64,000 nt of DNA from Enterococcus pallens ATCC BAA-351 (GTDB lineage: Bacteria > Bacillota > Bacilli > Lactobacillales > Enterococcaceae). Shown one piece after another: positions 2,699 through 47,138 of this stretch (the first letter of the stretch is position 1; each line of letters opens with the position of its first letter). The position numbers were made by a program, and so were the translations under genes. The DNA lies in NCBI RefSeq assembly GCF_000407485.1, contig NZ_ASWD01000004.1:124001-188000 (forward strand), in the 5' to 3' direction. The notes beneath the pieces are model-generated. The model was not told the origin of the DNA. It was given only the letters and a program-made list of their open reading frames with translations, and did no database searches.

Positions 2699-2717
2699 CA
2701 GTGCTTAACCCCTTTCT

Positions 2718-3623: not shown

Positions 3624-3632
3624 CGTCTTCAC

Positions 3633-4433: not shown

Positions 4434-4450
4434 TTCTACACCCCATTTTA

Positions 4451-4460
4451 CACATTTGTG
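4451..4460. promoter_or_regulatory. Palindromic operator CACATTTGTG (downstream copy)
   Basis: A perfect 10-bp palindrome lying between the predicted start of transcription and the first gene of the sorbose-type operon. An identical palindrome lies upstream of the promoter (4549-4558) and another in front of the SorC-family regulator gene (12825-12834). Position suggests a repressor or looping site. Confidence 0.6.
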
Positions 4461-4489
4461 ATTTCAAATTAACGTTTGTTACACTTTGT

Positions 4490-4518
4490 ATTCTAGCCCC
4501 TCAAGAAAACGTTGTCAA
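4490..4518 (-). promoter_or_regulatory. Sigma-70 promoter of the sorbose-type PTS operon
   Basis: On the minus strand a consensus -35 TTGACA (4513-4518) and a -10 TAGAAT (4490-4495) are separated by exactly 17 bp. It drives the dehydrogenase/PTS operon. The -35 box overlaps a cre-like sequence and the promoter is bracketed by two CACATTTGTG palindromes. Confidence 0.82.
4504..4517 (+). promoter_or_regulatory. Candidate catabolite-responsive element (cre)
   Basis: AGAAAACGTTGTCA matches the CcpA consensus TGWAANCGNTNWCA at 13 of 14 positions (the first base differs). It overlaps the -35 box of the sorbose-type operon, so CcpA binding would be expected to repress when preferred sugars are present. 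Sequence-only assignment. Confidence 0.55.
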
Positions 4519-4548
4519 CAACTTTTTGCAATTTATTTAAATTGAATT

Positions 4549-4558
4549 CACATTTGTG
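4549..4558. promoter_or_regulatory. Palindromic operator CACATTTGTG (upstream copy)
   Basis: Second perfect copy of the palindrome, 98 bp from the copy at 4451-4460 and upstream of the -35 box. The pair flanks the promoter, an arrangement compatible with a multimeric SorC-family regulator bridging the two sites. Confidence 0.6.
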
Positions 4559-4560
4559 CT

Positions 4561-4603
4561 AAAAAACAAAAAAATGATGACCAAGCTATTTTGCTCAGTC
4601 ATC
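4561..4603 (-). terminator. Rho-independent terminator of the LevR-controlled PTS operon
   Basis: An 11-bp stem (4576-4586 with 4593-4603, two G-U pairs) is followed on the minus strand by a long T-rich run (4561-4575). It lies 8 bp after the stop codon of the tyrosine phosphatase gene and separates that operon from the next promoter. Confidence 0.85.
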
Positions 4604-4611
4604 GGCCTTTT

Positions 4612-5670: not shown

Positions 5671-5686
5671 TGATTGTCCTCCAATT

Positions 5687-6499
5687 TTATGCAAGAATTC
5701 CTAATACTGAAAGCAGTACGCCAAAGACTAAAGTTCCAACGATAAAGGAAACGGCATGTTTACCCTTGGTCTTTTTCAGGGCTAAGATAAAGCCCACTGT
5801 TAAAAGCATTGGTAAAAGGTTCGGCATGATTTTATCCAGCATTTCCTGAACGACAATTTCATTTTCACCAATTTTGTAGCTGATACCAACACTCATTTTA
5901 ACTGTGTTCACCAGCAAACCGCCTACGACTGTACAACCTAGGACATTCGCCATCGTAGAAATTCGTTGAATCATAGCACTGCCGCCTGTAGTCAGCAAAT
6001 CAATCCCCTTTTTATAGCCATAATGAACACCATAATAGCGCATTAAAATATTGACTGCGGCGAACATTACCAGCATCAAAATCGGGCCTAAAGCATTTTT
6101 CTCCAAGGCCAAGGAAGCGCCGATACTACCACAAATTGGCAGCCAAGTGAACTTCATTAAGCTGTCGCCTAAGCCAGCTAATGGTCCCATCATCCCAGTT
6201 TTTAAAGCAATAACTGATTCTTTTTCATCCTCGCTGGTCTTTTCTTCCATGGCAATTACTACACCTGCGATTAAGCCGTTCATAGTCGTCATGCCGTTAA
6301 AGAATTCCAGATGGCGTTTCATCGCCCGTTTTCTACCTTCAATATCCTCTTCAGGATAAAGTTTTTCTAAGCTGGGAAGAATACTATAAAGCATCCCTAA
6401 TGTTTGCATCCGTTCATAGCCAAAAGAAATCGAACCAACATTTGTTCGCCAAAAGGCCTTATTCAATTCTCTTTTAGTAATTTTACTTTCTTCCATCAT
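5687..6499 (-). CDS. PTS mannose/fructose/sorbose family EIID component (second operon)
   Basis: This 270-residue EIID protein has the family N-terminus (ELNKAFWRTNVGSISFGYER) and the GMMGPLAGLGDSLMKFTWLP motif. It partners EIIC in the membrane. Its ATG overlaps the EIIC stop codon (TAATG), implying coupled translation. It is clearly a paralogue of the EIID at 1017-1871 but divergent, so the two PTS probably take different sugars. Confidence 0.93.
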   Translation of the reverse strand: MMEESKITKRELNKAFWRTNVGSISFGYERMQTLGMLYSILPSLEKLYPEEDIEGRKRAMKRHLEFFNGMTTMNGLIAGVVIAMEEKTSEDEKESVIALKTGMMGPLAGLGDSLMKFTWLPICGSIGASLALEKNALGPILMLVMFAAVNILMRYYGVHYGYKKGIDLLTTGGSAMIQRISTMANVLGCTVVGGLLVNTVKMSVGISYKIGENEIVVQEMLDKIMPNLLPMLLTVGFILALKKTKGKHAVSFIVGTLVFGVLLSVLGILA

Positions 6500-7290
6500 T
6501 AGAGATCATAGCTCCCTTCCTCGTCCTCTGACATTTGATTGTCCGTTTGTTCTTCTGGGGCACTGTTTTTCTGGTTGGCTGCTAAATCATAAACTGCAGC
6601 TGCCGCAATTCCGATAAAGGAAACGGCTAAAAGCGGTAAATCCAAATAAGCAACTAAGGTAAAGCCCAGTAAAACAAAAACCCACATCCGGCCTTTTAGC
6701 ATCATAGTCAACAGCATAGCAATCCCTACTGCTGGAATCATGCTGGAGGCCGTACTTAATCCATTAATAATTGATTCGGGTAAAGCATTCAAAATATTTT
6801 CGACGGCATCTGATCCTAAATAAATCGCCATAAATACTGGTACTGCACGAATCAAGAAGAGAAATGGTACTCCTTCGTATTGAATAAATTTGATTTTACT
6901 AAAATCACCGTTTTCAGCTGCTCGATCAGCCTGATGAATAATAAAGCTGGCAGCGGTATTCCATAAAACTAATAATTGCTGACAAAGAATCGAGGCTGGA
7001 ACTGCAATAGTAACTCCGGCAGCTACGCCTCCGCCAGTCAGGATTCCCATAGCCGTTCCTACAACTGCCCCCGACACTACATCCGGTGAACTGTAAGCAC
7101 CTACGTTTCCAACACCCATCCACATTAATTCCAATGTTGCACCAATTACTAACCCTTGGCCTAAATCTCCTAATAACAAACCTACAACTGCTCCACATGG
7201 TAACGGTCTGCGTAACCCGAACTGTGGTCCCTTGTCATCCAAGGAACAAATCCCAGCCCAGATTGCAACAAGAATAGCCGATTGTAACAT
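6499..7290 (-). CDS. PTS mannose/fructose/sorbose family EIIC component (second operon)
   Basis: This 263-residue hydrophobic EIIC-Man protein has the signature GLLLGDLGQGLVIGATLELM followed by GVGNVGAYSSPDVVSGAVVG. It ends in an acidic cytoplasmic tail. The ATG lies behind AGGGGGAAG, 12 bp after EIIB. It forms the transport channel together with the downstream EIID. Confidence 0.93.
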   Translation of the reverse strand: MLQSAILVAIWAGICSLDDKGPQFGLRRPLPCGAVVGLLLGDLGQGLVIGATLELMWMGVGNVGAYSSPDVVSGAVVGTAMGILTGGGVAAGVTIAVPASILCQQLLVLWNTAASFIIHQADRAAENGDFSKIKFIQYEGVPFLFLIRAVPVFMAIYLGSDAVENILNALPESIINGLSTASSMIPAVGIAMLLTMMLKGRMWVFVLLGFTLVAYLDLPLLAVSFIGIAAAAVYDLAANQKNSAPEEQTDNQMSEDEEGSYDL

Positions 7291-7302
7291 CCCACTTCCC
7301 CC

Positions 7303-7767
7303 TTAGCTTAACGTTTCTTTTTTGTCTTTTGGTACCATTTGAATAAATACATCTACCCCATCTGCGATCATTGCATCCAATGCTGCTTTTTCCTGATCTG
7401 TCACTGATACGGCTTTTGACAAACGGTTGTTGCGGGTTTCATTGTATCGAATACCACCTACATTGACTGATTCCAAGGGCAAACCATTTTGATGAACGTC
7501 ATGAACATCAATTGGATTGCTGAACAGCAGCATGGTTTGCTTTTTGATTGGATTTTTCTTAACAATGTTATTGAATTGGCCTACGCCAAATACATGAACC
7601 TTCACATTAGCTGGTGCTGTCATCATCAAGACCGATTTTTGAACCGAGTCGTTGACTAACTTATCATTAACAATAATAATCTGTTCAATTCCATATTCGT
7701 TCACCCAGCCTGTCACTACTTGACCATGGATCAAGCGATCGTCAATTCTAACTAATTGTATACTCAT
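7303..7767 (-). CDS. PTS mannose/fructose/sorbose family EIIB component (second operon)
   Basis: EIIB-Man protein of about 154 residues with RIDDRLIHGQVV; His14 is the expected phosphorylation site. I chose the ATG giving MSIQLVRIDD because it matches family starts and has AAGGAAG upstream; the longer frame begins deep inside EIIA. The gene overlaps the end of EIIA by about 20 bp, so translation is probably coupled. Confidence 0.9.
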   Translation of the reverse strand: MSIQLVRIDDRLIHGQVVTGWVNEYGIEQIIIVNDKLVNDSVQKSVLMMTAPANVKVHVFGVGQFNNIVKKNPIKKQTMLLFSNPIDVHDVHQNGLPLESVNVGGIRYNETRNNRLSKAVSVTDQEKAALDAMIADGVDVFIQMVPKDKKETLS

Positions 7768-8185
7768 CTTCTTCATCTTCCTTTCGTGATAAAATATCAT
7801 TCAATACATTAAAGCTGTTTTGATGCGACTGGCAAAGGATCTCCCTGATTTCTTCCAGGTTCTTTTGTCGATTCACAAATAGTTCCAGCAGCATCGGCAG
7901 ATTGAAGCCGGTAATACCTAAAACATTTTCCTTTGTCATAACAATTGTTCCAGCAACATTGCTTGGAGTTCCTCCTAAAATATCAGATAACAGTAGTACC
8001 CCATTGGAATCATCCACCATTTCTAATGCTTTCTGTGTTTCACTCACTACAGCATCCAAATCTTTTTCTGGTGTCACCGAGATAGTGGCAACATTCTCTA
8101 ATTCTCCAATGATCATTTCAGCGCTTTTTAGTGCTTCCTGCGCATAATAACCATGACTCATTAATACGACTGCAACTTCTTTCAC
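7748..8185 (-). CDS. PTS mannose/fructose/sorbose family EIIA component (second operon)
   Basis: This 145-residue EIIA-Man protein has VVLMSHGYYA with the phosphorylatable His11 and the LLSDILGGTPSN region. It starts at a GTG (8185) with a strong GAGGAGGG ribosome site. It is the first gene of the operon and lies about 20 bp downstream of the expected sigma-54 transcription start. It should receive phosphate from HPr and may also take part in controlling the LevR-type activator. Confidence 0.93.
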   Translation of the reverse strand: MKEVAVVLMSHGYYAQEALKSAEMIIGELENVATISVTPEKDLDAVVSETQKALEMVDDSNGVLLLSDILGGTPSNVAGTIVMTKENVLGITGFNLPMLLELFVNRQKNLEEIREILCQSHQNSFNVLNDILSRKEDEEDEYTIS

Positions 8186-8216
8186 AGTTGATCCCTCCTC
8201 TTCGTATTACTATAAA

Positions 8217-8231
8217 GCAAGTGGCGTGCCA
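8217..8231 (-). promoter_or_regulatory. Sigma-54 (-24/-12) promoter of the second PTS operon
   Basis: On the minus strand TGGCAC (8226-8231), five bases and TTGC (8217-8220) give an exact match to the sigma-54 consensus TGGCAC-N5-TTGC. The divergent neighbour encodes a LevR-type activator with an intact GAYTGA sigma-54 contact loop, so the pair is mutually supporting. Confidence 0.92.
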
Positions 8232-8252
8232 ATACGGATAGAGAACCGTATT
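8231..8252. promoter_or_regulatory. Candidate activator (UAS) site for the LevR-type regulator
   Basis: A perfect inverted repeat, AATACGG (8231-8237) and CCGTATT (8246-8252) with an 8-bp spacer, abuts the sigma-54 promoter. The string AATACGGATA recurs at 8350-8359, just before the activator gene, and ACGGATA also occurs at 8331-8337. Enhancer sites for LevR proteins usually lie in this kind of position; exact limits are a guess. Confidence 0.5.
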
Positions 8253-8369
8253 TTGGCGTTTTGGTTGTCAAAACAATCCGGTAGCCGATTGATAATCAAT
8301 ACGCTTTCCGTTAGAATGAGGAGAAATAAGACGGATAACACGGTTTATGAATACGGATAGGAGAAAATA

Positions 8370-11201
8370 ATGAAACGGATCGATAAAATTCATACACTTG
8401 TAAAAGAATATACGAAAAACGTTCAGTTAAGTGATTTGTCAGATAAAAAAGTCGGGATTACTTCGGTGGATCTGGCGGCGCAAACGGATATTTTGCGGAA
8501 CAACGTTTCACAGGATTTAAACCAGCTCCATCGAGAATTAAAACTGATCAAAATTAAAGGCAAACCGGTTCGCTATTTGGATGCTGAACAAATTGCTGTC
8601 CTGCTGGGTGGAAAAATTCAGTCCAAGGATTTGTTATTCCAGTCAGCGGCCGAATTACTGGAGGCCCCAGTCCAAGCAAACGATCAAGGCGATCCCTTCC
8701 GTTCATTGATTGGAGCCACTGGCAGCTTGTCCCCGATTATTCAGTCAGCGAAGGCTTCGATTCTATATCCCCCTTTTGGTCTGCACACCCTTTTGCTAGG
8801 AGAATCCGGCACAGGAAAAAGCCTATTTGCAGAAGTAATGTATCGGTACGGCCAAACTGAAGGCGTATTCAAAGAAAACAGTGCCTTTATTCGTTTCAAT
8901 TGTGCCGATTACGCCACCAATCCGCAGTTTTTAATGAGTATGCTGTTTGGTACCCGCAAAGGTGCTTACACCGGTGCCGATGAAGAACGGGCGGGGTTGA
9001 TTGAGGCTGCAGATGGCGGAGTGTTATTCCTAGATGAAATTCATCGGTTGCCGCCAGAGGGCCAGGAAATGCTGTTTCATTTTATGGATCAGCACACTTA
9101 TCGCCGGATGGGAGAAACTGCTAATGAACGAACCTCCAAGGTATTAATTATTGGAGCAACCACCGAAACCGTCAGCAACCACTTGCTAACTACCTTTTTA
9201 AGACGGATTCCCGCGACAATTTGGTTGCCGAATTTGGAAGAACGAGGAGCCAAGGAACGGTTGGAATTGCTTGAATTTTACAGTCAACAGGAAGCGGAAA
9301 AGCTGCATTCACCAGTGGAATTTTCTCGCAATGCGTTGTTCCTGCTGAGCTGTTACCCAGCAAAGGGCAACTTAGGCCAGCTGCGCAGCGATCTGCAATT
9401 GACGATCGCCCGGGCTTATTTGGAAACGCGGCAAAATAATTCTTCTCGGGTGCATGTCACTAGTAAAATGCTGCCAACTTATATTGTGCAGCGCAAAGAA
9501 GCCTTATCCCCAGAAAAAAGAAACCGAGTAGAAAAGCTGCTGCCCACGGATAAGCTGGTGATTTATCCTACTCCTAAGGAAAAGCCTTCTGACCAACTAG
9601 TCATTGAACATGATTTTGTTAATTACTATTTGAACCAATTGTTGACCTCTAAGGGTAGTGTTGACTTGGAACAGCTTTTCCATGAATACACCTTGGAAAT
9701 CAGTAAAAATACCTTATACGAAGACAGCTACTCAGTGTTGTTCGATCCCCTTACCCAGGAAATATCGTCTGTCTTGGCAGAACTTTTAGTAGATGAGTAC
9801 AAGCTGAACTTTGAGGAAAATATTTATCTGTCCTTGGCGTTGTTTATCCGAAATATTCAGCAGTCCAATGGTAAACGCGTGAATACAGTGTTTCCTGAGG
9901 ATGAAATTCATTTATCTGATCAGGCAGTTAAAACGGCAAAGAAAATGGTCGAAATTATTGAGAAACGCTTCAATATTGTTTGTGATACCAATGAGCTGAC
10001 CGTTTTAGCTACCATTATTCATACCTTGATTGAAGGCCGGCAAAACCAAGAAATCCGCTTTTTAGTAGTGGCTCATGGTGAAGCCACTGCTACCAGCTTA
10101 GCCAATACGATTAATCATTTGTTGAATACAGATATTGTTTTAGGCTTGGATATGCCCTTAACCATGAGTCCAACTGAAACAGTCGGAGAAATTGAAAAAG
10201 TGATCAAAAGCTTTCCTTCTACTCACTCGTGGATTCTCTTTGTGGATATGGGCTCTTTGATTCAGCTAGACAAGCAAATCAAGCAGTCGGAGGATCAGAA
10301 TTTCTATGTAATGGAAACAACCGATATTTTGATTATTTTGGAAAGTGTCCGAAAAGTCCTATTCACCTCACGAACTGCGGAGCACATTGTCGCGGATATT
10401 GCCAAAATGTCCGATCTGCAAAATGACAAACTGCAGCGGAAAATCAAGGAATATCTGTCGATTCGGATGAACCGGGTCATTTATACGGTTTGTTCTTCTG
10501 GTGAAGGAGTAGCACTATTTTTAGAAAAGATCATCGGTGACTTTTTGCGGGAGAACCACATTTATGATGTCCAGCTTATTCCCTTAAACGGAACCCAGCA
10601 GGAAGTGGGCCAGTTAATTCGCTCCACTTCTCAGGATAAAGAGGTGGTTAGTGTTATCGGTAGTATTGAACCCAAGAATCTAACCTCGCCGTTTCTCTCT
10701 CTGAATGATATTTTAATGGGTCAAGGCTTGAACCAGCTGTTGTATCTTTTAGGCGAAGAACGGGCACCAGCTCAAAAAGAACATTCCATCGAGAAAGCGA
10801 CTCAAAGCTTAGTTCTGCAACTGTGTCAGGAAACATTAGATAAATATTTGATGTATTTATCGGCCAACAAAATCACTCCAATGCTGATGAACTTTATTGA
10901 AGCACTGGAAAAACAGTTAGCAGAAAGCTTCAGCAACAATCTGCTGACTAAGCTGTTTATCCATACTGGCTGTTTGTTGGAGCGAATTCTCTTTCACGAA
11001 CAGTTGCTGGCTATTACACCTGAGGATGAAGAGTGGGTAAAAACAGAAGGACAAGCTTTGGATGCTTTGCTGCAGGAGACATTGAAGCCAATAGAAGATT
11101 TACTACAGCTTTCGATTAATCTACAAGAACGGTATTACTTAATTCAATTATTACTAGAAAACTTTCCTCATTTAGTGACCAAAAATGCGCTAGCCGATTA
11201 G
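8370..11201 (+). CDS. levR: LevR-type sigma-54-dependent PTS operon activator
   Basis: This 943-residue regulator has a DNA-binding N-terminus, an AAA+ sigma-54 activation domain with Walker A GESGTGKS (144-151), the GAYTGA sigma-54 contact loop (198-203) and Walker B VLFLDE (218-223), then a PTS-regulation domain, an EIIA-Man-like domain (VVAHGE), an EIIB-like segment with a Cys (TVCSSGEG) and a second PRD near the C-terminus (FIHTGCLLERI). Such proteins drive mannose-family PTS operons in response to phosphorylation by HPr and EII. It is divergent from a PTS operon with a consensus sigma-54 promoter. The symbol denotes the family; the sugar is unknown. Confidence 0.93.
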   Translation: MKRIDKIHTLVKEYTKNVQLSDLSDKKVGITSVDLAAQTDILRNNVSQDLNQLHRELKLIKIKGKPVRYLDAEQIAVLLGGKIQSKDLLFQSAAELLEAPVQANDQGDPFRSLIGATGSLSPIIQSAKASILYPPFGLHTLLLGESGTGKSLFAEVMYRYGQTEGVFKENSAFIRFNCADYATNPQFLMSMLFGTRKGAYTGADEERAGLIEAADGGVLFLDEIHRLPPEGQEMLFHFMDQHTYRRMGETANERTSKVLIIGATTETVSNHLLTTFLRRIPATIWLPNLEERGAKERLELLEFYSQQEAEKLHSPVEFSRNALFLLSCYPAKGNLGQLRSDLQLTIARAYLETRQNNSSRVHVTSKMLPTYIVQRKEALSPEKRNRVEKLLPTDKLVIYPTPKEKPSDQLVIEHDFVNYYLNQLLTSKGSVDLEQLFHEYTLEISKNTLYEDSYSVLFDPLTQEISSVLAELLVDEYKLNFEENIYLSLALFIRNIQQSNGKRVNTVFPEDEIHLSDQAVKTAKKMVEIIEKRFNIVCDTNELTVLATIIHTLIEGRQNQEIRFLVVAHGEATATSLANTINHLLNTDIVLGLDMPLTMSPTETVGEIEKVIKSFPSTHSWILFVDMGSLIQLDKQIKQSEDQNFYVMETTDILIILESVRKVLFTSRTAEHIVADIAKMSDLQNDKLQRKIKEYLSIRMNRVIYTVCSSGEGVALFLEKIIGDFLRENHIYDVQLIPLNGTQQEVGQLIRSTSQDKEVVSVIGSIEPKNLTSPFLSLNDILMGQGLNQLLYLLGEERAPAQKEHSIEKATQSLVLQLCQETLDKYLMYLSANKITPMLMNFIEALEKQLAESFSNNLLTKLFIHTGCLLERILFHEQLLAITPEDEEWVKTEGQALDALLQETLKPIEDLLQLSINLQERYYLIQLLLENFPHLVTKNALAD

Positions 11202-22737: not shown

Positions 22738-23256
22738 ATGGACGTTTGGGAAAATTTTGACTTTCAATCCTTTTGGGAAGAATCAACTTATGCAAAAGAA
22801 CATTATGAAGGAAACGACTTCACTGTATCTGATAGACAAATTATCGAGGAGCAGTTAGGTTATAAATTGCCAGATTCCTATGTTTCTTTCATGCAAAAGC
22901 ATAATGGAGGAATCCCAACTAGGACAGAATTTGAAACAAAGACACCAACAAGCTGGTCCGATACAGGAATTGCGATTAATGGTTTTCTGAATATTGGATT
23001 GGCTGGGGAAAATGCCTTGCTGGGAGAATTTGGCAGTCGCTTTTGGATTGAAGAATGGGGCTATCCAGATATTGGTATTGCTATCTGTGACTGCCCTTCT
23101 GCTGGTCATGATATGGTTTTCTTGGATTACAAAAAATATGGGACACCCGATGCTCCTGCGGTCGTTCACATTGATCAAGAATTTGATTATACAATTACTT
23201 TTCTAGCCAAGGATTTTGAAAGCTTTGTATTCGGTCTGAAGGAAGAAGAATATTAG
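22738..23256 (+). CDS. SMI1/KNR4 (SUKH) family protein
   Basis: This 172-residue cytoplasmic protein has the SMI1/KNR4 pattern: YKLPDSYVSFMQKHNGG in the first third, then FLNIGL, and WGYPDIGIAICDCPSAGHDM in the middle. Proteins of this superfamily often serve as immunity proteins against secreted nuclease toxins, but no toxin gene is adjacent, so the role here is open. The ATG has AAGGAGG upstream and the gene ends at a strong terminator. Confidence 0.85.
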   Translation: MDVWENFDFQSFWEESTYAKEHYEGNDFTVSDRQIIEEQLGYKLPDSYVSFMQKHNGGIPTRTEFETKTPTSWSDTGIAINGFLNIGLAGENALLGEFGSRFWIEEWGYPDIGIAICDCPSAGHDMVFLDYKKYGTPDAPAVVHIDQEFDYTITFLAKDFESFVFGLKEEEY

Positions 23257-29530: not shown

Positions 29531-29742
29531 GTGTTTTGTCTGGTAATTTTTAAAAAACTTTAGCTGTTTTAAAAACACTCAGCCCTTGAAAAGTCAGAAA
29601 GGCTTTGATACTAAGTTTGGTAAGGGTTGCAAAGGACTGCTTCTGTAAAATCCGTCCGGTCGACAAAAAAACTGCTAAGAACGTTTTCTTAGCAGCCGAT
29701 GAAAGCCAGGTGAATAACCAGTCTTCTATTTTTCCTATTCTG
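29531..29742. other. Intergenic stretch between the exporter promoter and vanS
   Basis: Together with the promoter region (29431-29530) this makes a gap of about 310 bases between tetR and vanS. Apart from the promoter, operator and the van terminator (29665-29695) I see no gene; a short plus-strand open frame here has no ribosome site. Confidence 0.5.
29665..29695 (-). terminator. Terminator of the van operon
   Basis: A perfect 9-bp stem (CTGCTAAGA with TCTTAGCAG) is followed on the minus strand by seven T. It lies 48 bp after vanS. Confidence 0.9.
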
Positions 29743-30819
29743 TTAAATTGTCAGAATGATCTCGAAGTACCCATCCGCATTTTTAGCAGCTATCTTACCA
29801 CCGTGTTCTTCAATAATTTGCTTGGCGATTGCCAAGCCTAAGCCGGCATTTCCGGTTTTCGTATTCCTTGCTTGATCTGCTCTAAAAAATGGGTCGAATA
29901 ATTGTTCCAGCACTTCTGGTGACAGAGCTTCGCTTTGATTTTTGATTGACAGCTCTATTTGATTTTCTTTGTTAGCTAACGTTAATTTTACTTTTGTATG
30001 ACTAGGTGCGTAAGCCAAGACATTTCTGATGACATTTTCCAGCACGCGCTCAAATTTGATGACATTGACTTCAGCATAGCTGTTTTCTGCTATTTCCAGC
30101 TCCCACTCCAAGCCCTTTTCAGCGAAGAGAGGTAAAAATTCTGAGGTAATTTGAGCAATCATCAAGCTCAAATTGGTTCTTTCCTTTGAAATTTTTTCAC
30201 CATTCATACCGATTTTGGCAATTTCAAAAAAATCATTGATTAATCCTTCGAGGCGATAGGCTTTATCGGAAATGATTTGAATGTATTCGTTACTCTTCTT
30301 ATCGTCTAACTCACTATACGTTTCATTTTGCAACAAGGAAACATACCCAATAATACTAGTTAAGGGAGTTCGCAGGTCGTGAGCTAAATAAACCAATAAA
30401 TCATTTTTCTTTTTTTCCGCTTCCTTTACCAATCGCTTATCTTTTATGCTTTCTTCCCTAATTTGATTGATTTCCTGTTCAAATTCGTAAAGCTCATCGC
30501 TCAATCTGACTTTTTCCTCTGGAAACTCAATGAGTATTTTAGTCGCTCGCAGCATTTCTTCCAAATAGTTCATGATTTTTTTAAAGAAGATGTAGGTAAT
30601 TAAAAACCAAAATGCGAAGGGGATGCCTACTACCCACAAAGGTAAGAAGCGATTGAATACATGCAATACAGGATAAATAAACTCATCCCCATGCCAGACC
30701 CTAAGAGAAAGGAACATTTTAGCTGCTAAAGGAACGACCACTAGAATAGCCGTAACCGCAAACATCGTAAAAAAATAGTTTTTAGTAATTTGAATGGTCA
30801 GCTTATTTTTATTTCTCAA
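29743..30819 (-). CDS. vanS: VanS-type sensor histidine kinase
   Basis: This 358-residue membrane kinase has two transmembrane helices (about 15-38 and 60-80) around a short outer loop, then a dimerisation domain with the phosphorylated His147 in AHDLRTPLTSI and an ATP-binding domain ending in GNAGLGLAIAKQIIEEHGG. The G1-box region reads IKNQSEALS, without the classical Asp-x-Gly. It should sense vancomycin-type antibiotics or cell-wall stress and phosphorylate VanR. It overlaps vanR by 11 bp and is the last gene of the van operon. Confidence 0.92.
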   Translation of the reverse strand: MRNKNKLTIQITKNYFFTMFAVTAILVVVPLAAKMFLSLRVWHGDEFIYPVLHVFNRFLPLWVVGIPFAFWFLITYIFFKKIMNYLEEMLRATKILIEFPEEKVRLSDELYEFEQEINQIREESIKDKRLVKEAEKKKNDLLVYLAHDLRTPLTSIIGYVSLLQNETYSELDDKKSNEYIQIISDKAYRLEGLINDFFEIAKIGMNGEKISKERTNLSLMIAQITSEFLPLFAEKGLEWELEIAENSYAEVNVIKFERVLENVIRNVLAYAPSHTKVKLTLANKENQIELSIKNQSEALSPEVLEQLFDPFFRADQARNTKTGNAGLGLAIAKQIIEEHGGKIAAKNADGYFEIILTI

Positions 30820-31498
30820 TTGTATACCCCACTCCCCAGACTGTTTTTAGGAACTTGGGCTGTCTTGGCTTTTCATGCATTTTTTCTCTAATTCTGGCAA
30901 CATGAGCCATTACAGTGTTGTTGTTTTCCAAATAATCTTCCTGCCAAACCTGCTCGAAAAGCTCCTCTGATGGAACCACGCGTCCTTCGTTTTTGCAGAG
31001 ATACCAGAGAATATCGAACTCAATCGGCGTTAATTTGATTTCTTCATCATATAAGAAGACCTTACGGCTGTTGCCGGATACAGCAAGACCATTTCGTTCA
31101 TATTCATCAGTGGCCGGTTGGCGATCAGAATTATAGGTTTGGTATCTTCGTAATTGAGTTTTCACTCGAGCCAATACTTCGAAGGGATTGAAGGGTTTGA
31201 CAATATAATCATCTGCTCCCATGGATAAGCCGCTAATTTTATCCAAGTCAGCCCCGCGAGCAGTTAGCATCAAGACTGGAAAAAACTGCGTTTCCCTGAT
31301 TTTTTGCAACACATCAAAGCCGGATACATCCGGCAGCATCACATCTAAAATAGCTAAATCAATCGCAGTTTCTTTGACAATCGCCAGGCTCTCTTCACCA
31401 GTCATTGCTTTATAGACTTCATAGCCTTCATTAGTCAGTAATGTACTTAAAAGATCAATAATCTCTTTTTCATCATCTAATAGTAGAACCTTAGCCAT
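30809..31498 (-). CDS. vanR: VanR-type response regulator
   Basis: This 229-residue OmpR-family regulator has the acidic pocket LLDDE, the phosphorylated Asp52 in AILDVMLPD, the Lys of IVKPF, and a C-terminal winged helix (KLTPIEFDILWYLCKNEGRV, VWGVGYTIEK). It starts at an ATG with GGAGGG upstream, 31 bp after vanT, and overlaps vanS. It should activate the van promoter once phosphorylated. Order ligase-vanXY-vanT-vanR-vanS is that of VanC, VanE and VanN clusters. Confidence 0.93.
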   Translation of the reverse strand: MAKVLLLDDEKEIIDLLSTLLTNEGYEVYKAMTGEESLAIVKETAIDLAILDVMLPDVSGFDVLQKIRETQFFPVLMLTARGADLDKISGLSMGADDYIVKPFNPFEVLARVKTQLRRYQTYNSDRQPATDEYERNGLAVSGNSRKVFLYDEEIKLTPIEFDILWYLCKNEGRVVPSEELFEQVWQEDYLENNNTVMAHVARIREKMHEKPRQPKFLKTVWGVGYTIEK

Positions 31499-31529
31499 AC
31501 ATTTCCCTCCATCACCTTTTATTTAGTAG

Positions 31530-33641
31530 TCATCCATGTATTTCTGAGCTTAATCTTGTGCCTAGACGACTCAAGATTTCATTGGTAATTGTTTTTTGTT
31601 CAACGGCTGTTTTTTCAATGTCAGGGAGGACTGTTACTTCATCATTTACCGCAATCGCTTCTATTTCAGTTAAATCAACAAGCAGCATATCCATACAAAT
31701 ATTCCCTAGCTGTCTTAACTGCTGGCCCTTAAACTCTAACATAAATCCTTGATTTGATAATGCTCGAGGAATGCCATCTGCATATCCGATGCTGACAACT
31801 CCAATTGTCGCAGCCTTTTCTAATCGAGTCTCTAAGCCATAACCAATGTATTCACCTGCTGAGACTGAGCGTTTTAGAACCAAGGCTGCTTTTATTTGTA
31901 CGACCTGTTTCAAATCTAAGGAAATTTTCGTTGGAGAACTGCTATCGCTTAAAAAGCCGTAAAGGATGATTCCTGCTCTAACAAAATCAAAGTGGTACTC
32001 TGGATAATTTAGTAGACCGTAGCTACTTTGAATGTGTGTATAGCCATAGGAAATACCGGCTTCTTTTAAATCATTTAACACTTTGGTAAATAGCTCCAGC
32101 TGCTTCTTGGTTCGTAAAACGGCTCCCTCCTCCAATGAATCAGAGGAGCCTAAATGTGAATAGATTCCTTCTATCTGCAGATAATTCAGTCGGTAAAAGG
32201 ATTGGATAGTTTTTGCCTCAGGAGCTAAGCCTAAACGGTGCATTCCCGTATCAACCTGCAAATGACAGCGAATCGGAATTCTTTTTAGATTCAATTTTCT
32301 TCCATGCTCTTCACTTACAATAGATTGGATTAAATTGTACTTCTTTATTTCCTTGATACGAGCCGGATCAGTATAACCTAATAATAAGATATCTGCTTGA
32401 ACAGCTGCTTTTCTTAATACAATGGCCTCATCGATAGTGGCTACACAAAGAAAATTGACGCCATTTTTTTCCAGCTCTTTGGCGATGGTTACCATGTCGC
32501 AGCCGTAAGCGTTGGCCTTTACGACACCCATAATCTTAGTTTGCTTAGGCAGTATTTTTCTAATTTCAGCCAGATTATGACCAAGAGCTTGCCTAGATAT
32601 TTTTCTGACAGCACGAGGAGTAGCAGTTGGCTTTTTCCTAGCACTCAACCTGTCCATTAAATACACCAGAATCTGAGCTACCACCAAACTGCCAGCTAGT
32701 ACTAAGATATAGTTAAGTACACTGTTTTTCAAGAACAGAAGATGGTTACTTAGAAAATGAACAACGACTATCAATATCGGATGTAGAATATACACCAATA
32801 AAGACAAGTTAGCGGCACTTTTTATTTCGATCTTCGGCTGCCACTTCAGCAGCACCACATACAAGCAAAGCATACACAACGGCAAGAAAAGATACATACT
32901 ATCGTGCCTAACTTTCGTCAACTGATGAAGAATGGTACTCTCGCCAAGCATCCCTATTAAAAATAGTACTAGCAGCAGATTTATATGTTTTAGGTGTTGG
33001 AAAAATTCCTGCTGGCGATAGATCAGCATTCCTAAACACAGGAAAATAGGCACTAAAAAGAGACCTGAGCGAGTGTACTCCATCCAAATAAACAAAAACC
33101 CATAAAATTTATCGACTAAAGGGCTGGAACCAACGATTCCGTACCAGCTGTCCCCTCCCAAACCAATTAAGTACAAACAAATAGATAGTACAAAGGTTTT
33201 ATTGAACTTCAGAGCTTTAATCAGTAAAGCGGTCAGACCGACTCCCATCATAAGTCCTGGGAAATACCACAGATGATAAAAGGTTCCATCAAACAGAAGC
33301 AGCTTAAAAAAAGTAAATAAATTGGTTTTTAGCGAGAGAGTCCCATTTATAAACGAAAGCGGCAAATACAATACGATTGCTCCTAAATAGATCAACCCAA
33401 TTTTGCCAACATACTTTTTGGTTTTTTCCATATTCGTATACGATGGATCTACGGATAGTTTTCCCATGACAAAATAACCAGTTGTCATTAGAAAAAACGG
33501 CACAGCTACTCGGAAAACGGTAAGCGTGATAAGCTCATCTAAACGCGGAGCGATTGATTGAAAAGGAAAAGTATGGATTGCCACCACCATAGAAGCCGCT
33601 ATTATGCGAAATACATCAATCCCTCTATTTCTATGCTTCAT
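31530..33641 (-). CDS. vanT: VanT-type membrane-bound serine racemase
   Basis: About 703 residues in two parts. Residues 1-335 form an acyltransferase-3-like membrane domain with about ten helices (GIDVFRIIAASMVVAIH at the start), thought to take up or hold L-serine. Residues 350-703 form an alanine/serine racemase domain with the PLP-binding Lys375 in VVKANAYG and the GYADG and ICMDM motifs. It makes D-serine for the D-Ala:D-Ser ligase. I chose the ATG at 33641 with GGAG upstream; a TTG five codons earlier lies deeper inside vanXY. The membrane and racemase parts are fused, unlike the split pair of VanL. Confidence 0.93.
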   Translation of the reverse strand: MKHRNRGIDVFRIIAASMVVAIHTFPFQSIAPRLDELITLTVFRVAVPFFLMTTGYFVMGKLSVDPSYTNMEKTKKYVGKIGLIYLGAIVLYLPLSFINGTLSLKTNLFTFFKLLLFDGTFYHLWYFPGLMMGVGLTALLIKALKFNKTFVLSICLYLIGLGGDSWYGIVGSSPLVDKFYGFLFIWMEYTRSGLFLVPIFLCLGMLIYRQQEFFQHLKHINLLLVLFLIGMLGESTILHQLTKVRHDSMYLFLPLCMLCLYVVLLKWQPKIEIKSAANLSLLVYILHPILIVVVHFLSNHLLFLKNSVLNYILVLAGSLVVAQILVYLMDRLSARKKPTATPRAVRKISRQALGHNLAEIRKILPKQTKIMGVVKANAYGCDMVTIAKELEKNGVNFLCVATIDEAIVLRKAAVQADILLLGYTDPARIKEIKKYNLIQSIVSEEHGRKLNLKRIPIRCHLQVDTGMHRLGLAPEAKTIQSFYRLNYLQIEGIYSHLGSSDSLEEGAVLRTKKQLELFTKVLNDLKEAGISYGYTHIQSSYGLLNYPEYHFDFVRAGIILYGFLSDSSSPTKISLDLKQVVQIKAALVLKRSVSAGEYIGYGLETRLEKAATIGVVSIGYADGIPRALSNQGFMLEFKGQQLRQLGNICMDMLLVDLTEIEAIAVNDEVTVLPDIEKTAVEQKTITNEILSRLGTRLSSEIHG

Positions 33642-34212
33642 TGGCTGTTGCTCCAAATGAATGCAGAAATTCGATGTATTCTTCTAAAACCCAATTTTGT
33701 TGAAGCATAATAGAACTGTGGGGAGTGCCGACATATCTAAAATGCCAAGGTTCGTAACTAATATTGGTAATACTTTCTTTCCCTTTTTGGTACCTTAAAA
33801 TGAACCCAAAATCTGACATATTCGCTAGAAACTTATCAACCACTGGGCTGTTTGTAAAGCTTGGGCAAATGAAGTCATTCATTTGCGCTGCCAGACCTAC
33901 ATCTACAGCAAGTCCCAACTCGTGTTCACTGCATCCAGGCTTTGCCACGTATTTATTAGCAAACACCATTCCCTTTTCTTTAATCGTGTCTTCCCAAAGT
34001 GATTGCTGGGTCTGCTTTGACCGGTACCCGTCAATCACCTTAACCTGCCCTTCTAATCCGGTTTCTTTAAGCAGCTTTTCTAATTGACTGGCCACAAGAG
34101 GATCTAACAAGATCCCCTCCTTGGCAAAAGGTGCTTGAACAAGCTGTTTAGGGCGTTCGTAGTCCTGAATCTTATGGTCTTTATTTACAAGCTTTAAATA
34201 GTTTTTTTTCAT
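33631..34212 (-). CDS. vanXY: VanXY-type D,D-dipeptidase/D,D-carboxypeptidase
   Basis: This 193-residue zinc peptidase has the family motif SEHELGLAVDVG (zinc ligands His97 and Asp104) and EPWHFRYVG with the catalytic Glu154 and zinc ligand His157. VanXY enzymes hydrolyse D-Ala-D-Ala and remove the terminal D-Ala from pentapeptide precursors, so that only D-Ser-ended precursors remain. No signal peptide, in keeping with cytoplasmic VanXY. It overlaps both the ligase gene and vanT, which implies tight translational coupling. Confidence 0.94.
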   Translation of the reverse strand: MKKNYLKLVNKDHKIQDYERPKQLVQAPFAKEGILLDPLVASQLEKLLKETGLEGQVKVIDGYRSKQTQQSLWEDTIKEKGMVFANKYVAKPGCSEHELGLAVDVGLAAQMNDFICPSFTNSPVVDKFLANMSDFGFILRYQKGKESITNISYEPWHFRYVGTPHSSIMLQQNWVLEEYIEFLHSFGATANEA

Positions 34213-35242
34213 GGTTTTCCACCGCCAAAGTAAGTAGTTTTTTTATCATTTCTTTGTAGTCCAGCCCTATTTCCTTCATCATCATGGGGAATCTTGAATG
34301 AGCAGTAAAGCCCGGCATTGTATTAATTTCATTTAATAAAATTGCCCCATCCTCAGCTAAAAAGAAATCAATTCTTGCTAAGCCAGTACATCCCAGTGAC
34401 AAATACAGTTTTTGGGCATCGTCCTGAATCTTTTTCTTAGTAGTTAGCGGTATCTTTGCGGGCAGTATAATTTCTGCTGTTACTAAATTGTATTTTTCTT
34501 CGTAGTCAAAAAAACCATCGACTAAACTGATTTGATCGCATTCGCCAATAATTAATTCCTCATTGCCAAGAATCCCGCAGCCGATTTCTATGCCTTTGAC
34601 TTCCTTTTGAATAAGCAGCTGGCTGTCGTACTTAGCCGCTTCACGTAATGCTTGTGAGAGCTCGCTTCTTTCATTTACCTTGCTGATTCCCTTAGAAGAA
34701 CCGGCTTCATTTGGTTTGATGTATAACGGAAAGCCATGTACTTCAATAAAGCTTTCAAGCTTAGCTCGGTCCTTTTCATTTTGGACAATTATACTGGGTG
34801 TACTTTTTATCCCTAATGTTTCAGCAAATTGATGCAGCATTCGTTTATTCATGGAAATAGCCGAAGCTGCTACTCCACATCCAACATACGGGATATCCAT
34901 CATTTCAAGCAGTCCCTGCATCGCTCCATTTTCACCATATCCGCCATGCAAAACCGGGAATAGCGTATCGACTTTAAGTAGTTTTCCACTATCCGTTAAA
35001 ACAAACCCTTTTTGATCAAAATCAACCGCTACCTCTTTACACGTCTCAGCTGACAACCAAGTATCGTTTCTTATCTCGTCTACTGTTCCTTCAACCAAGT
35101 ACCAGCTTCCAGCTTCAGTAATCCCAATTTTTACTACCTCATACTCAGTAAATGCCAGCGTTTCAATAATTGCCGCCGCTGATTTTAATGAGACTTCATA
35201 CTCAGCAGAAACACCGCCAAAAAGAATGGCCACTTTTTTCAT
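34181..35242 (-). CDS. D-alanine:D-serine ligase (VanE/VanN/VanL/VanC type)
   Basis: About 353 residues. ATP-grasp ligase with KKVAILFGGVSAEYEVSL at the N-terminus, LHGGYGENG, KPNEAGSSKGISKV and LNEINTMPGF. The omega-loop motif EEKYN (248-252) is characteristic of ligases that add D-Ser, not D-Lac. The product D-Ala-D-Ser replaces D-Ala-D-Ala in peptidoglycan and gives low-level vancomycin resistance. I chose the ATG at 35242 (GGAGG upstream); the longer frame adds 11 residues. By recall the sequence is nearer VanE and VanN than VanC1 or VanC2, but the exact type cannot be assigned without alignment, so no letter is given. Confidence 0.93.
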   Translation of the reverse strand: MKKVAILFGGVSAEYEVSLKSAAAIIETLAFTEYEVVKIGITEAGSWYLVEGTVDEIRNDTWLSAETCKEVAVDFDQKGFVLTDSGKLLKVDTLFPVLHGGYGENGAMQGLLEMMDIPYVGCGVAASAISMNKRMLHQFAETLGIKSTPSIIVQNEKDRAKLESFIEVHGFPLYIKPNEAGSSKGISKVNERSELSQALREAAKYDSQLLIQKEVKGIEIGCGILGNEELIIGECDQISLVDGFFDYEEKYNLVTAEIILPAKIPLTTKKKIQDDAQKLYLSLGCTGLARIDFFLAEDGAILLNEINTMPGFTAHSRFPMMMKEIGLDYKEMIKKLLTLAVENHEKKLFKACK

Positions 35243-35274
35243 TTTCCTACCTCCATTGCGTTTATCTACTAACA

Positions 35275-35330
35275 ATCATAGAAAAAATGGGCGACTGAGT
35301 TATTAATAAATCCTTTTTTAAATCTTACGA
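35275..35330 (-). promoter_or_regulatory. Candidate VanR-dependent promoter of the van operon
   Basis: A minus-strand -10-like TATGAT (35275-35280) lacks a good -35. About 20 bp further upstream TCGTAAGATTTA (35319-35330) partly matches the 12-bp VanR box as I recall it (TYGTARGAAAWT). A weak core promoter with an upstream regulator site fits activation by VanR. Speculative. Confidence 0.35.
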
Positions 35331-35511
35331 ATTTATGATAATTTCTTTCCAGTACTCTTCGTTACAAAAAGTATCTATATGCACCACCTTCAGAAGCGGC
35401 TAAACTTGATTTTCCAGTAACTCTTCCCTGCCAAGCGTTTTCCTTTGCGGATTTTTGGGAATATGCGTATAACTAAATAAAATAAATCTATGAGCAAGGG
35501 AGAACCAGACG

Positions 35512-37177: not shown

Positions 37178-38047
37178 CTAATCCTTAACCATTAATTCCT
37201 GCGCCAGCCTTTGACCCGTTGGGGTCATTGCTAATCCGCCTTCTGCTGTTTCTTTGAAGATGCTAGGCATTTGGCGCCCCACCCGGTACATTGCCTCGAC
37301 GACTTCATCAGGTGGAATGACACTTTCAATACCGGCTAATGCCATGTCTGCTGAAATGAAAGCCTGTGAAGAGCCTAAAGCATTGCGCTTCACACAGGGA
37401 ACTTCTACTAAACCGGCGACTGGATCACAAATTAAGCCCATCATATTTTTTAAAGTAATCGCGACTGCTTGAGCAGCTTGATGCGGGGTGCCTCCATTGG
37501 CTTGAACCAAGGCAGCCGCAGCCATTGCACTGGCTGAACCTACCTCTGCCTGACAACCGCCTTCTGCACCAGAAATCGAAGCATTGTTGGCAATGACTAA
37601 ACCGAAGGCACCAGCAGTAAACAGGAATTCGAGTTGTTGGCTGTGACTCAGGTTTAAGCGCTTGCGGCAGGCCATTAAAACGCCTGGAACAACACCGGCA
37701 CTGCCAGCTGTTGGTGTGGCACAGATTAGGCCCATCTTTGCATTCACTTCGTTGACAGCAATCGCATTTCTCACCGCCGTCAAGATTGTTTCACCACTTA
37801 GAAAGTTTCCTGAATCTAGGTAGCTGTTTAGTTTCGTCGCATCGCCACCGGTTAGTCCGGTCACCGACTTAACTCCAGCTACTCCTTCATCAATGGACTG
37901 TTCCATCACTACTAGGTTTTTCTCCATCAAACGAATAATTTCTTCCCGTGTACGACCGCTTAATTGGATTTCGGTAGCAATCATCAGCTCGCTGATATTC
38001 TCGTAGTCCTGACTTTGTTCCACCAGCTCTTCAATACTGTAAAACAC
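37178..38047 (-). CDS. sdaAA: L-serine dehydratase, iron-sulfur-dependent, alpha subunit
   Basis: This 289-residue subunit carries the iron-sulfur active site: Cys residues in LICATPTAGSAG, GGCQAEVGSA and LICDPVAGLVEVPCVKRNA. With the beta subunit it deaminates L-serine to pyruvate and ammonia. It starts at a GTG behind GGAGG, 12 bp after the beta-subunit gene, and is the last gene of an operon with an MFS transporter and an M20 amidohydrolase, which suggests serine is released from an imported conjugate. Confidence 0.95.
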   Translation of the reverse strand: MFYSIEELVEQSQDYENISELMIATEIQLSGRTREEIIRLMEKNLVVMEQSIDEGVAGVKSVTGLTGGDATKLNSYLDSGNFLSGETILTAVRNAIAVNEVNAKMGLICATPTAGSAGVVPGVLMACRKRLNLSHSQQLEFLFTAGAFGLVIANNASISGAEGGCQAEVGSASAMAAAALVQANGGTPHQAAQAVAITLKNMMGLICDPVAGLVEVPCVKRNALGSSQAFISADMALAGIESVIPPDEVVEAMYRVGRQMPSIFKETAEGGLAMTPTGQRLAQELMVKD

Positions 38048-38059
38048 CGAAATCCTCCT

Positions 38060-38725
38060 TTATTCGAAATAAGAAACACTAAATACTGAATCGATCGCTT
38101 TGATTTTGTTTTGGACTGCTTCGTTGCGTTCATCTGTCTCGATGACGGTGATCGCTTTTTCCCCGACTGCTTCGCGAGAAACGGACATCGTACCGATGTT
38201 CACTTCAGCATCAAAGAAGAGCTGACTAATGTGAGCAATCATTCCGGGTACATCCTGATGCACAATAACAAAAGTCGGCATGCCCAAGGATAATGACAAT
38301 TTGAAGCCATTCACTTCAGAAATTTGGATATTGCCGCCGCCAATCGAAATGCCAGTAACGGTTAAGACATGATTACCACGGGTTAACTTTAGCTGCACCA
38401 TGTTAGGGTGTTCAGCTTTTTCTTGCTTGGGTACAAATAGAATTTCCATGCCTGCTTCATAAGCAATTTTCAGAGAATCACTGAGGCGTGGATCTTCTGG
38501 CTCCATGCCTAACAAGCCGCCCACTAATGCAATATCGGTGCCGTGTCCACGATAGGTTTTAGCGAAGGATTCGTACAAATAAATATCCACTGTATCGGGC
38601 CGTTCACCAAAAATTTTACGTACAACCTTCCCAATACGAGCAGCCCCAGCAGTATGCGAACTGCTGGGACCAATCATGATGGGGCCGATGATATCGAAAA
38701 TACTCGAATACTTTAATTGTTCCAT
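38060..38725 (-). CDS. sdaAB: L-serine dehydratase, iron-sulfur-dependent, beta subunit
   Basis: This 221-residue subunit has the family N-terminus (SIFDIIGPIMIGPSSSHTAG) and a C-terminal ACT domain from about residue 148 (FVIVHQDVPGMIAHISQLFF), probably for serine binding or control. It pairs with the alpha subunit directly downstream. The ATG has AAGGGG upstream, 19 bp after the amidohydrolase gene. Confidence 0.95.
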   Translation of the reverse strand: MEQLKYSSIFDIIGPIMIGPSSSHTAGAARIGKVVRKIFGERPDTVDIYLYESFAKTYRGHGTDIALVGGLLGMEPEDPRLSDSLKIAYEAGMEILFVPKQEKAEHPNMVQLKLTRGNHVLTVTGISIGGGNIQISEVNGFKLSLSLGMPTFVIVHQDVPGMIAHISQLFFDAEVNIGTMSVSREAVGEKAITVIETDERNEAVQNKIKAIDSVFSVSYFE

Positions 38726-46154: not shown

Positions 46155-47138
46155 TTACATTGCATTTAGATCAGTCACTTTGAAGGTTGCATCGTAGGCA
46201 AATTCAGTTGGTTCCGCTTTGTTCAGCAATGTTTCATCTAGCGTAAGCTTGTACACTTCTTGCGATTCATAAGGATTGAAATAGTAAGTCAGCTCAGTCA
46301 CATCCAGCACCGCCCGGTATTGAGTGTAATCCACAGAGGCATCGTCCTTAATATTAACCCCTTTAGGAATTGTCACGTTATCCAAAATTTTGAAGACCGC
46401 ATTTATCCCATCTTCAACTGTTTCGCCTGTATTTGTCAGCGTCCGTAAAAAGGTCGCTCGAGCAAATCGTTCTGGCGAAGTATAACCGCCTGGCAGGCCA
46501 AAGGTTCCTGAACCTTGCCCAAAAGGTTGAATGACATACTCATTAATTTTCTTTGCCGAAAAATTCGTTGGTTGAATACTCAAATAATTGTTCAAGTTTT
46601 TCAAGTGCCAGCCAAAATCAGGGCTGTTGGTCATCACACCAACTGGATTGTCTTTAATAACCATTTCTCCGCTGTCAGATTCCAGTACAACTGTCTCACC
46701 TGTTTTATCCGTAACAATGAAATGCAACGGCGGCACAAAGCCCATCATAGGAATAGCCTCTTCAACTAAACAAATCTCTGTAATTCTTTCTCTTAGTTCA
46801 GAGATACTTCCCATCTGACCCAATAACCACATAATAAATTCGTGGGGAGCCACATTCACTTTACCCTCCTGCGGCTCAGTATGATACTTAGCTTCATTTA
46901 GGAAGTACAACTCAGCTACAGCTAACCCTTTTTCGTTAACTCCTTCAGCTAAAAAATATTCTCCCAAATTTCGTCCGGTTCCAATGAAGCCATACTTTGT
47001 TCTCAGTGCACCTTGCTGCTGCCATTCATAATTGCGGGGAATGACCACAGGCCGGCCATCCAGCTGAAATCCAAAATCCATGGTTCTAGCTAAAAAATGA
47101 TGTCCTGCTTGGCAGGTTAATGTGATACTCGTACACAT
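46155..47138 (-). CDS. Choloylglycine hydrolase family protein (bile salt hydrolase / penicillin V acylase-like)
   Basis: This 327-residue N-terminal-nucleophile hydrolase starts Met-Cys, so Cys2 becomes the catalytic nucleophile after Met removal. Other family residues are visible: Arg18 and Asp21 in ARTMDFGF, Asn in MTNSPDF and Arg in SPERFARA. The family includes bile salt hydrolases, penicillin V acylases and acyl-amide hydrolases; sequence inspection does not decide which. The ATG has GGAG upstream. No signal peptide. Confidence 0.88.
   Translation of the reverse strand: MCTSITLTCQAGHHFLARTMDFGFQLDGRPVVIPRNYEWQQQGALRTKYGFIGTGRNLGEYFLAEGVNEKGLAVAELYFLNEAKYHTEPQEGKVNVAPHEFIMWLLGQMGSISELRERITEICLVEEAIPMMGFVPPLHFIVTDKTGETVVLESDSGEMVIKDNPVGVMTNSPDFGWHLKNLNNYLSIQPTNFSAKKINEYVIQPFGQGSGTFGLPGGYTSPERFARATFLRTLTNTGETVEDGINAVFKILDNVTIPKGVNIKDDASVDYTQYRAVLDVTELTYYFNPYESQEVYKLTLDETLLNKAEPTEFAYDATFKVTDLNAM

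What the first reader, a model, noticed from the sequence alone, without database searches (positions are those of the whole stretch)
29743..35242. Complete D-Ala-D-Ser van operon of a type that is not obviously VanC
Seen: five overlapping or near-abutting genes in the order ligase, vanXY, vanT (fused), vanR, vanS, with all catalytic motifs intact, a terminator and a leader. Known: this order is shared by VanC, VanE and VanN; VanL splits vanT. Inference: from remembered sequences the ligase (GGVSAEYEVSL, EEKYN, ILGNEE) is nearer VanE/VanN/VanL than VanC1/C2, so it may be a variant or an undescribed intrinsic type. It is surrounded by chromosomal genes with no transposase or integrase visible.
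Basis: partly seen in the sequence, partly recalled or inferred. Interest (0 to 1): 0.78.

Follow-up and report, generated by a model that had tools for sequence, protein, structure and literature searches.

The report
VanE-like vancomycin-resistance operon
This is a complete, intact five-gene set of the kind enterococci use for low-level vancomycin resistance, most like the known VanE type but different enough (about 70% identical) to be its own subtype; its parts and likely workings are otherwise ordinary.

Summary
NCBIfam calls the ligase a D-alanine--D-serine ligase (613 bits, cut-off 520), but it misses the VanE cut-off (588 of 700) and those of VanC, VanN, VanG and VanL. It is 69-70% identical to ligases NCBI names VanE, 56% to VanC1, 55% to VanN, 51% to VanL. 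A tree puts it in a supported clade with VanE; grouping with VanC, VanL/VanN or genus-mates' ligases is rejected. So 'nearer VanE' is right and 'VanN/VanL' wrong. A 19-base promoter element, probably a VanR site, is shared with VanC, VanN, E. caccae and E. gilvus clusters and not found in eight clusters lacking downstream vanRS. The three closest relatives by flanking genes have no van here; one carries another cassette in the same slot. Base composition is ordinary. The host is probably E. pallens (inferred), whose reported isolates were vancomycin-susceptible (PMC5343133), so expression is the open question. Verdict: a new variant of a known kind, modest interest.

The parts
34181..35242 (-). 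[quoted passage not shown]
   Evidence: NF000207 613 bits, cut-off 520; 70% to NCBI-named VanE P0003; Arg in SRFP where own Ddl has Met
33631..34212 (-). vanXY, D,D-dipeptidase/carboxypeptidase (193 aa); overlaps the ligase gene
   Evidence: NF000380 305 bits, cut-off 250; SEHELGLAVD and EPWHF stretches aligned with those of 4mur
31530..33656 (-). vanT, membrane-bound serine racemase, membrane and racemase parts fused (708 aa)
   Evidence: NF033132 vanT-CELN 1206 bits, cut-off 900; racemase part aligned with serine racemase 4ecl
30809..31498 (-). vanR response regulator (229 aa)
   Evidence: NF033117 362 bits, cut-off 350; 83% to the E. caccae copy
29743..30819 (-). vanS sensor kinase (358 aa); overlaps vanR
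   Evidence: NF033091 347 bits, below its cut-off of 400; 58% to the E. caccae copy
35320..35338 (-). 19-base promoter element, probable VanR site, 96 bases upstream of the ligase ATG
   Evidence: Profile made from 5 other van promoters scores it 25.6 bits; the next best of 127,964 places in the window scores 15.1
29670..29697 (-). intrinsic terminator after vanS
   Evidence: 12-pair stem, 4-base loop, T run; fold z -3.3
29575..35432 (.). slot filled by the van operon; DNA homology to genus-mates ends on either side
   Evidence: blastn against 10 stretches of genus-mates: left homology ends at 29565-29574 in G006, G005, G011; right homology begins at 35433 (G015) and 35443 (G007) at the earliest, later in five others

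Best explanation
A VanE-like, probably inducible D-Ala-D-Ser vancomycin-resistance operon. VanS senses glycopeptide stress and phosphorylates VanR, which turns on transcription upstream of the ligase through the 19-base element. VanT makes D-serine from L-serine, the ligase joins it to D-alanine, and the host MurF puts D-Ala-D-Ser on the wall precursor. VanXY removes D-Ala-D-Ala and D-Ala-ended precursors. Vancomycin then binds its target several-fold less well. Gene identity, order, open frames, ligase and VanXY motifs and the shared promoter element are shown; enzyme activity, VanR binding, induction and actual resistance are inferred from the families. It is a distinct subtype in the VanE clade, set in a variable slot of the genome.
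For: Family cut-offs met by ligase, VanXY, VanT and VanR. Ligase in one clade with NCBI-named VanE, support 98/96. Arg in place of the Ddl Met in the SRFP motif, shared by all 7 D-Ser-type references of the alignment. Same order as the VanC1 and VanN clusters and E. caccae. Promoter element in 10 of 10 clusters with vanRS downstream (5 of these trained the profile, and near-duplicate pairs G046/G048 and G047/VanC1 are counted separately), in 0 of 4 without vanRS in the stretches held and 0 of 4 with vanRS upstream. Pathway roles as in passages of PMC8541618.
Against: VanS falls below its family cut-off. The consensus scan found no sigma-70-type promoter upstream of the ligase on its strand. 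If the host is E. pallens, its reported isolates were susceptible to vancomycin and teicoplanin (PMC5343133, whole held text read), so the operon may be silent or too weak to cross the breakpoint. No activity, expression or MIC was measured here.
Confidence: 0.88

Rival explanations
1. The operon is a cryptic resident: its proteins work but it is hardly expressed in this host, so the strain tests susceptible. (A shading of the main reading, so the two confidences overlap.)
For: E. pallens isolates were reported susceptible (PMC5343133); host probably E. pallens (inferred). PMC8541618 lists VanC MICs from 2 ug/mL, within the susceptible range of 4 or less given in PMC9866002 (passages). No consensus promoter was listed upstream of the ligase.
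Against: Frames, ligase and VanXY motifs and promoter element are intact; the allele is kept at 98% in another dataset. It is not known whether those isolates carry the operon.
Confidence: 0.35
2. It is simply VanE, mobilised recently from the E. faecalis/E. caccae group.
For: Closest named relatives are VanE; a clade with only the three cut-off-passing VanE rows is not rejected (AU p 0.21). Ligases of genus-mates G007 (E. gilvus, inferred) and G016 are of other types, and a clade with them is rejected (p 3e-6).
Against: Only 69-70% identity and 588 bits of 700. GC3 of the five genes lies within 0.8 SD of 48 other window genes. None of the 16 flanking proteins tested matched in the 21-kb E. 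caccae stretch.
Confidence: 0.08
3. The ligase is a housekeeping D-Ala-D-Ala ligase of unusual sequence.
For: Ddl-type families also match the protein, two or more above their cut-offs.
Against: The genome has a separate Ddl-like gene 34% identical to it, the D-Ser equivalog scores far above the Ddl models, and it sits with vanXY and vanT.
Confidence: 0.02

Closest known systems
VanE cluster (E. caccae copy L001 and P0003, both named VanE by NCBI; type first described in E. faecalis)
   Same: Same gene order in E. caccae, same ligase clade
   Different: Ligase 69%, vanXY 76%, vanT 62%, vanR 83%, vanS 58% to the E. caccae copy, with none of the 16 flanking proteins tested in common; ligase misses the VanE cut-off
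VanC1 (E. gallinarum, L167)
   Same: Gene order and the promoter element
   Different: Ligase 56%; clade with VanC rejected, p 1e-5
VanN (pEfm12493, L166) and VanL (P0039)
   Same: D-Ser type; VanN has the same order and promoter element
   Different: Ligase 55% and 51%; clade rejected. VanL splits vanT (recalled; NCBIfam has separate VanT-L subunit models)
Cluster of G007 (E. gilvus, inferred; L150), no named type
   Same: Same genus group, gene order and promoter element
   Different: Ligase 55% and nearer VanN/VanL by NCBIfam score, at another place in the genome

Membership tests
D-Ala-D-Ser vancomycin-resistance operons (VanC/E/L/N kind) | Ligase of the D-alanine--D-serine equivalog | tested here: met
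   NF000207 613 bits, cut-off 520
D-Ala-D-Ser vancomycin-resistance operons (VanC/E/L/N kind) | vanXY and membrane serine racemase vanT alongside | tested here: met
   NF000380 and NF033132 above cut-off
D-Ala-D-Ser vancomycin-resistance operons (VanC/E/L/N kind) | VanR/VanS pair | tested here: inconclusive
   VanR passes (362/350); VanS has the VanS model as its best match but misses the cut-off (347/400)
D-Ala-D-Ser vancomycin-resistance operons (VanC/E/L/N kind) | D-Ala-D-Ser-ended precursors and low-level resistance | not testable with these tools
   needs culture and precursor analysis
VanE type | Ligase above the NCBIfam VanE cut-off of 700 | tested here: not met
   588 bits; the 98% relative P0001 586; P0003 781, E. 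caccae P0005 747 and P0004 708 pass
VanE type | Same clade as VanE ligases | tested here: met
   8-row clade with support 98/96; it also holds P0002, P0006 and P0009, which miss the VanE cut-off
VanC, VanN, VanL, VanG types | Ligase above that type's cut-off | tested here: not met
   VanC 473/650, VanC1 439/775, VanN 436/700, VanG 427/495, VanL 410/750

The most novel reading that the evidence does not exclude
A further, uncatalogued van type: an inducible D-Ala-D-Ser operon proper to one Enterococcus lineage (probably E. pallens), kept at a genomic slot where close relatives carry other genes, and silent or sub-breakpoint under standard tests.
Probability: 0.35. Interest if true: 0.5.

Novelty: new variant of a known kind. 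Interest (0 to 1): 0.33.

Why it matters
It widens the VanE branch and adds to a wide scatter of D-Ala-D-Ser-type ligases in the family: 14 of 105 genomes searched, own included, hold one at least 48% identical. A genome survey reported no resistance genes in E. pallens (PMC12094018, passages), so if the host is that species, catalogue-based screens may overlook such operons. The shared promoter element gives a direct test of common VanR control across types.

Tried and rejected
Rejected: nearness to VanN/VanL and membership in VanC (AU tests; these groups were tested after a first tree had been seen, which weakens the p-values). Rejected as part of the system: the adjacent serine dehydratase genes (37178-38725), which would consume VanT's substrate, because G005 has them beside tetR with no van genes. 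In 'viral contigs' 12 stretches hit a pattern and none encoded a relative. In 'plasmids' 644 records matched, all under 60%; the best places were VanN 54.5% and VanC1 55.6%. No direct repeats of 12 bases or more within either border stretch (repeats between the two stretches were not tested). The published 12-base VanR consensus (PMC4405338, passages) scored alone did not stand out in the window: two other places score 9 of 11 (shuffle P 0.13) and the shared element only 8 of 11. The 19-base core was read off promoters that included the window, so only the profile, made from five others, counts as a control; its most nearly independent rows are the window, E. caccae and G050. Published vanE primers (PMC12004154, passages) have 6 and 4 mismatches here, against 3 and 2 in E. 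caccae; amplification was not modelled. No structure was predicted. The canonical VanE of E. faecalis BM4405 was not obtained; P0003 stands in by NCBI's name and score, and the vanE cluster paper is not held. Searches for a prior report were made; one search found none, the others gave listings, some cut (20 of 30, 20 of 82, 12 of 99). No listed title or abstract start names a van operon of E. pallens, and nor do the passages of the papers opened; most subscription papers are not in the library, so a prior report cannot be excluded.
Full report
What is there. Five open genes on the minus strand fill 29743-35242 in the order ligase, vanXY, vanT, vanR, vanS. Ligase and vanXY overlap, vanXY and vanT overlap, vanR and vanS overlap, and 31 bases separate vanT from vanR. 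NCBIfam models at their curated cut-offs identify the ligase as D-alanine--D-serine ligase, the second gene as VanXY, the third as VanT of the C/E/L/N kind and the fourth as the VanR family; VanS has the VanS model as best match but scores 347 of 400. A terminator follows vanS: 12-pair stem and T run, folding better than 200 of 200 shuffles. The same scan listed fewer promoter-like and terminator-like sites in the region than shuffles give, and none of the promoter kind on the minus strand upstream of the ligase.

Which type. The ligase scores 588 bits on the VanE model, whose cut-off is 700, and falls further short on VanC, VanN, VanL and by a smaller margin on VanG (427 of 495). A search of 5.8 billion proteins (8,000 candidates scored, 120 of 4,263 hits listed) gave first a 98% relative without source or name, then unnamed and NCBI-named VanE proteins at 69-71%. 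Of ten relatives scanned, three passed the VanE cut-off: P0003 (781 bits, Enterococcus sp. DIV0242_7C1), P0005 (747, E. caccae) and P0004 (708, unnamed). By blastp the window ligase is 70% to P0003, 69% to E. caccae, 56% to VanC1, 55% to VanN and 51% to VanL. For scale, VanL and VanN are 64% identical, and VanC1 and the C2-like G048 ligase 67% ('C2-like' is inferred), so 70% lies at a distance at which types or subtypes have been named before.

Tree. With 42 ligases or 41 without the long Ddl branch, the window and its 98% relative fall in a clade of eight with the three VanE rows and P0002, P0006 and P0009 (support 99/96 and 98/96). The data reject a clade with the ligases of genus-mates G007 and G016 (p 3e-6), with VanC rows (p 1e-5) and with VanL/VanN (p 8e-58); the groups were tested after the first tree had been seen. 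A clade with only the three VanE-passing rows is not rejected (p 0.21), so the exact place within the VanE clade is open. Because genus-mates carry other types, transfer between lineages at some time is likely (inference).

Working parts. In the alignment with VanE, E. caccae, VanC1, the C2-like ligase, VanL, VanN, VanG and the genome's own Ddl, all seven D-Ser-type references and the window have Arg in the S-R-F/Y-P motif where Ddl has Met, and share E-K-Y nearby where Ddl has A-K-Y. That this Arg helps select D-Ser is recalled from work on VanC2; a search of PMC12004154 for it found nothing. VanXY keeps, aligned with the D,D-dipeptidase/D,D-carboxypeptidase 4mur, the SxHxxGxAxD and ExxH stretches (motif names and 4mur being VanXYC are recalled). 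The racemase half of VanT aligns along its length with the serine racemase 4ecl. Pathway roles follow a review (PMC8541618, passages).

Control. Ligase promoters of relatives share a 19-base element, TCATAAAWTCGTNAGAWTT. A profile from five other promoters (G007, G092, C2-like G048, VanN, VanC1) scores the window site at 35338-35320 at 25.6 bits, the best of 127,964 places; the next scores 15.1. Across 18 clusters examined, all 10 with vanRS downstream have it (19-29 bits, none of 300 shuffles as good). The 4 without vanRS in the stretches held (V. fluvialis, Vagococcus sp. DIV0080, G016, G057) score 10.4 to -0.7, with 17 to 210 of 300 shuffles as good; V. fluvialis and DIV0080 keep a degenerate copy at the same distance. 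The 4 with vanRS upstream score 2.1 to -4.4 before the ligase and 6.3 before vanR. Five of the ten trained the profile and two others are near-duplicates of trained ones, so the more independent confirmations are the window, E. caccae and G050. The second half resembles the VanR/VanRG consensus (T/C)CGTANGAAA(T/A)T of PMC4405338 (passages), though only 8 of 11 in the window, where two other places score 9. I read it as a VanR site; binding was not shown.

The site. The genus search covered 20 genomes: a ligase at 54% or more occurs in the window's genome, G007 and G016 only, and three others have 42-43% matches. Among the 19 other genomes only G006, G005 and G011 have a close copy (92-96% by tblastn; 94-96%) of the neighbouring transporter gene. 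In none of the three fetched stretches did a van protein match, nor did their genomes give a ligase match at E 1e-70. G006 keeps both neighbours, tetR and the monooxygenase gene, with about 5 kb of other genes between them, by eye a PTS-type sugar cassette. G005 has tetR followed after about 330 bases by the serine dehydratase genes, and G011 has tetR beside the aldo-keto reductase gene; the monooxygenase gene was not found in either genome. Homology stops at 29565-29574 on the left and starts at 35433 (G015) and 35443 (G007) on the right, or later in five other stretches. The gene at 35512 is linked to the monooxygenase gene in 4 of the 7 stretches fetched with the latter, out of 16 other genomes that have it. 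So the van operon sits in a slot that changes content between close relatives. GC3 of the five genes is within 0.8 SD of 48 other window genes, and vanS total GC is 1.4 SD low: no sign of a recent foreign origin. Pfam scans of 20 neighbours (18883-47138) found no transposase, integrase or recombinase family; two had no match at all, and the gene at 44495 matches GyrI-like best and also Cass2, an 'integron-associated effector binding protein'. Genes beyond that span were not scanned.

Host and phenotype. The genome is 5.44 Mb in 13 contigs, the window lying on a 459-kb contig, so chromosome and large plasmid cannot be told apart here. One survey gives E. pallens as the largest of its clade at 5.4 Mb and reports no resistance genes in it (PMC12094018, passages). 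The only other genome of that size in the genus set, G005, best matches Enterococcus sp. AZ163 (98%). The host is therefore probably E. pallens, but no call names it. E. pallens isolates from Quebec were reported susceptible to vancomycin and teicoplanin (PMC5343133, whole held text). D-Ala-D-Ser types give MICs of 2-32 (C) and 16 (E) (PMC8541618 table), so an operon of this kind may stay under the breakpoint, be uninduced, or be absent from those isolates. This is the main unresolved point.

Verdict. The finding is real, correctly located and mostly correctly read. It works like VanE (inferred) and lies in its clade but fails the curated VanE threshold, so it is filed as a VanE-like variant of the D-Ala-D-Ser kind, not as VanE.

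Noticed in passing
L002, L003 (Vagococcus), L151 (G016), L156 (G057): D-Ala-D-Ser-type clusters with no vanR/vanS pair in the stretches held and a weak or no promoter element; in L151 vanT matches as two separate halves and in L156 only the racemase half matched, suggesting VanL-like splits.
   Followed up: partly
L157-L160 (G086, G085, G071, G075): A separate, well-supported clade of D-Ser-type ligases (48-52% to the window) with vanR-vanS upstream of the ligase and the same 19 bases TGAAGAAATCTTAAGTATT 78-79 bases before vanR in all four.
   Followed up: no
L155 (G048), 8085-10171: vanT of this C2-like cluster matches in two overlapping pieces in different frames, so it may be frame-shifted in that assembly; the G046 copy matches in one piece.
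   Followed up: no
L167 (NZ_CP116511.1): A VanC1 cluster lies on a 484-kb circular E. gallinarum record labelled plasmid, although a review lists VanC as neither acquired nor transferable.
   Followed up: no
G000:C5:10635-11657 and G000:C1:1107467-1108477: Besides the Ddl-like gene on C2 (35% to the window ligase), the genome has two more distant matches (29% each); the C5 one has a TAG within the aligned stretch.
   Followed up: no
L140 (G006) 2255-7369: By eye, a PTS-type sugar cassette with a GntR-like regulator and a SIS-like gene occupies the slot that holds the van operon in the window.
   Followed up: partly
22738-23256: Single SUKH/SMI1-KNR4 family gene, a family often found as immunity proteins (the immunity role is recalled).
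   Followed up: no
46155-47138: Choloylglycine (bile salt) hydrolase family gene.
   Followed up: no
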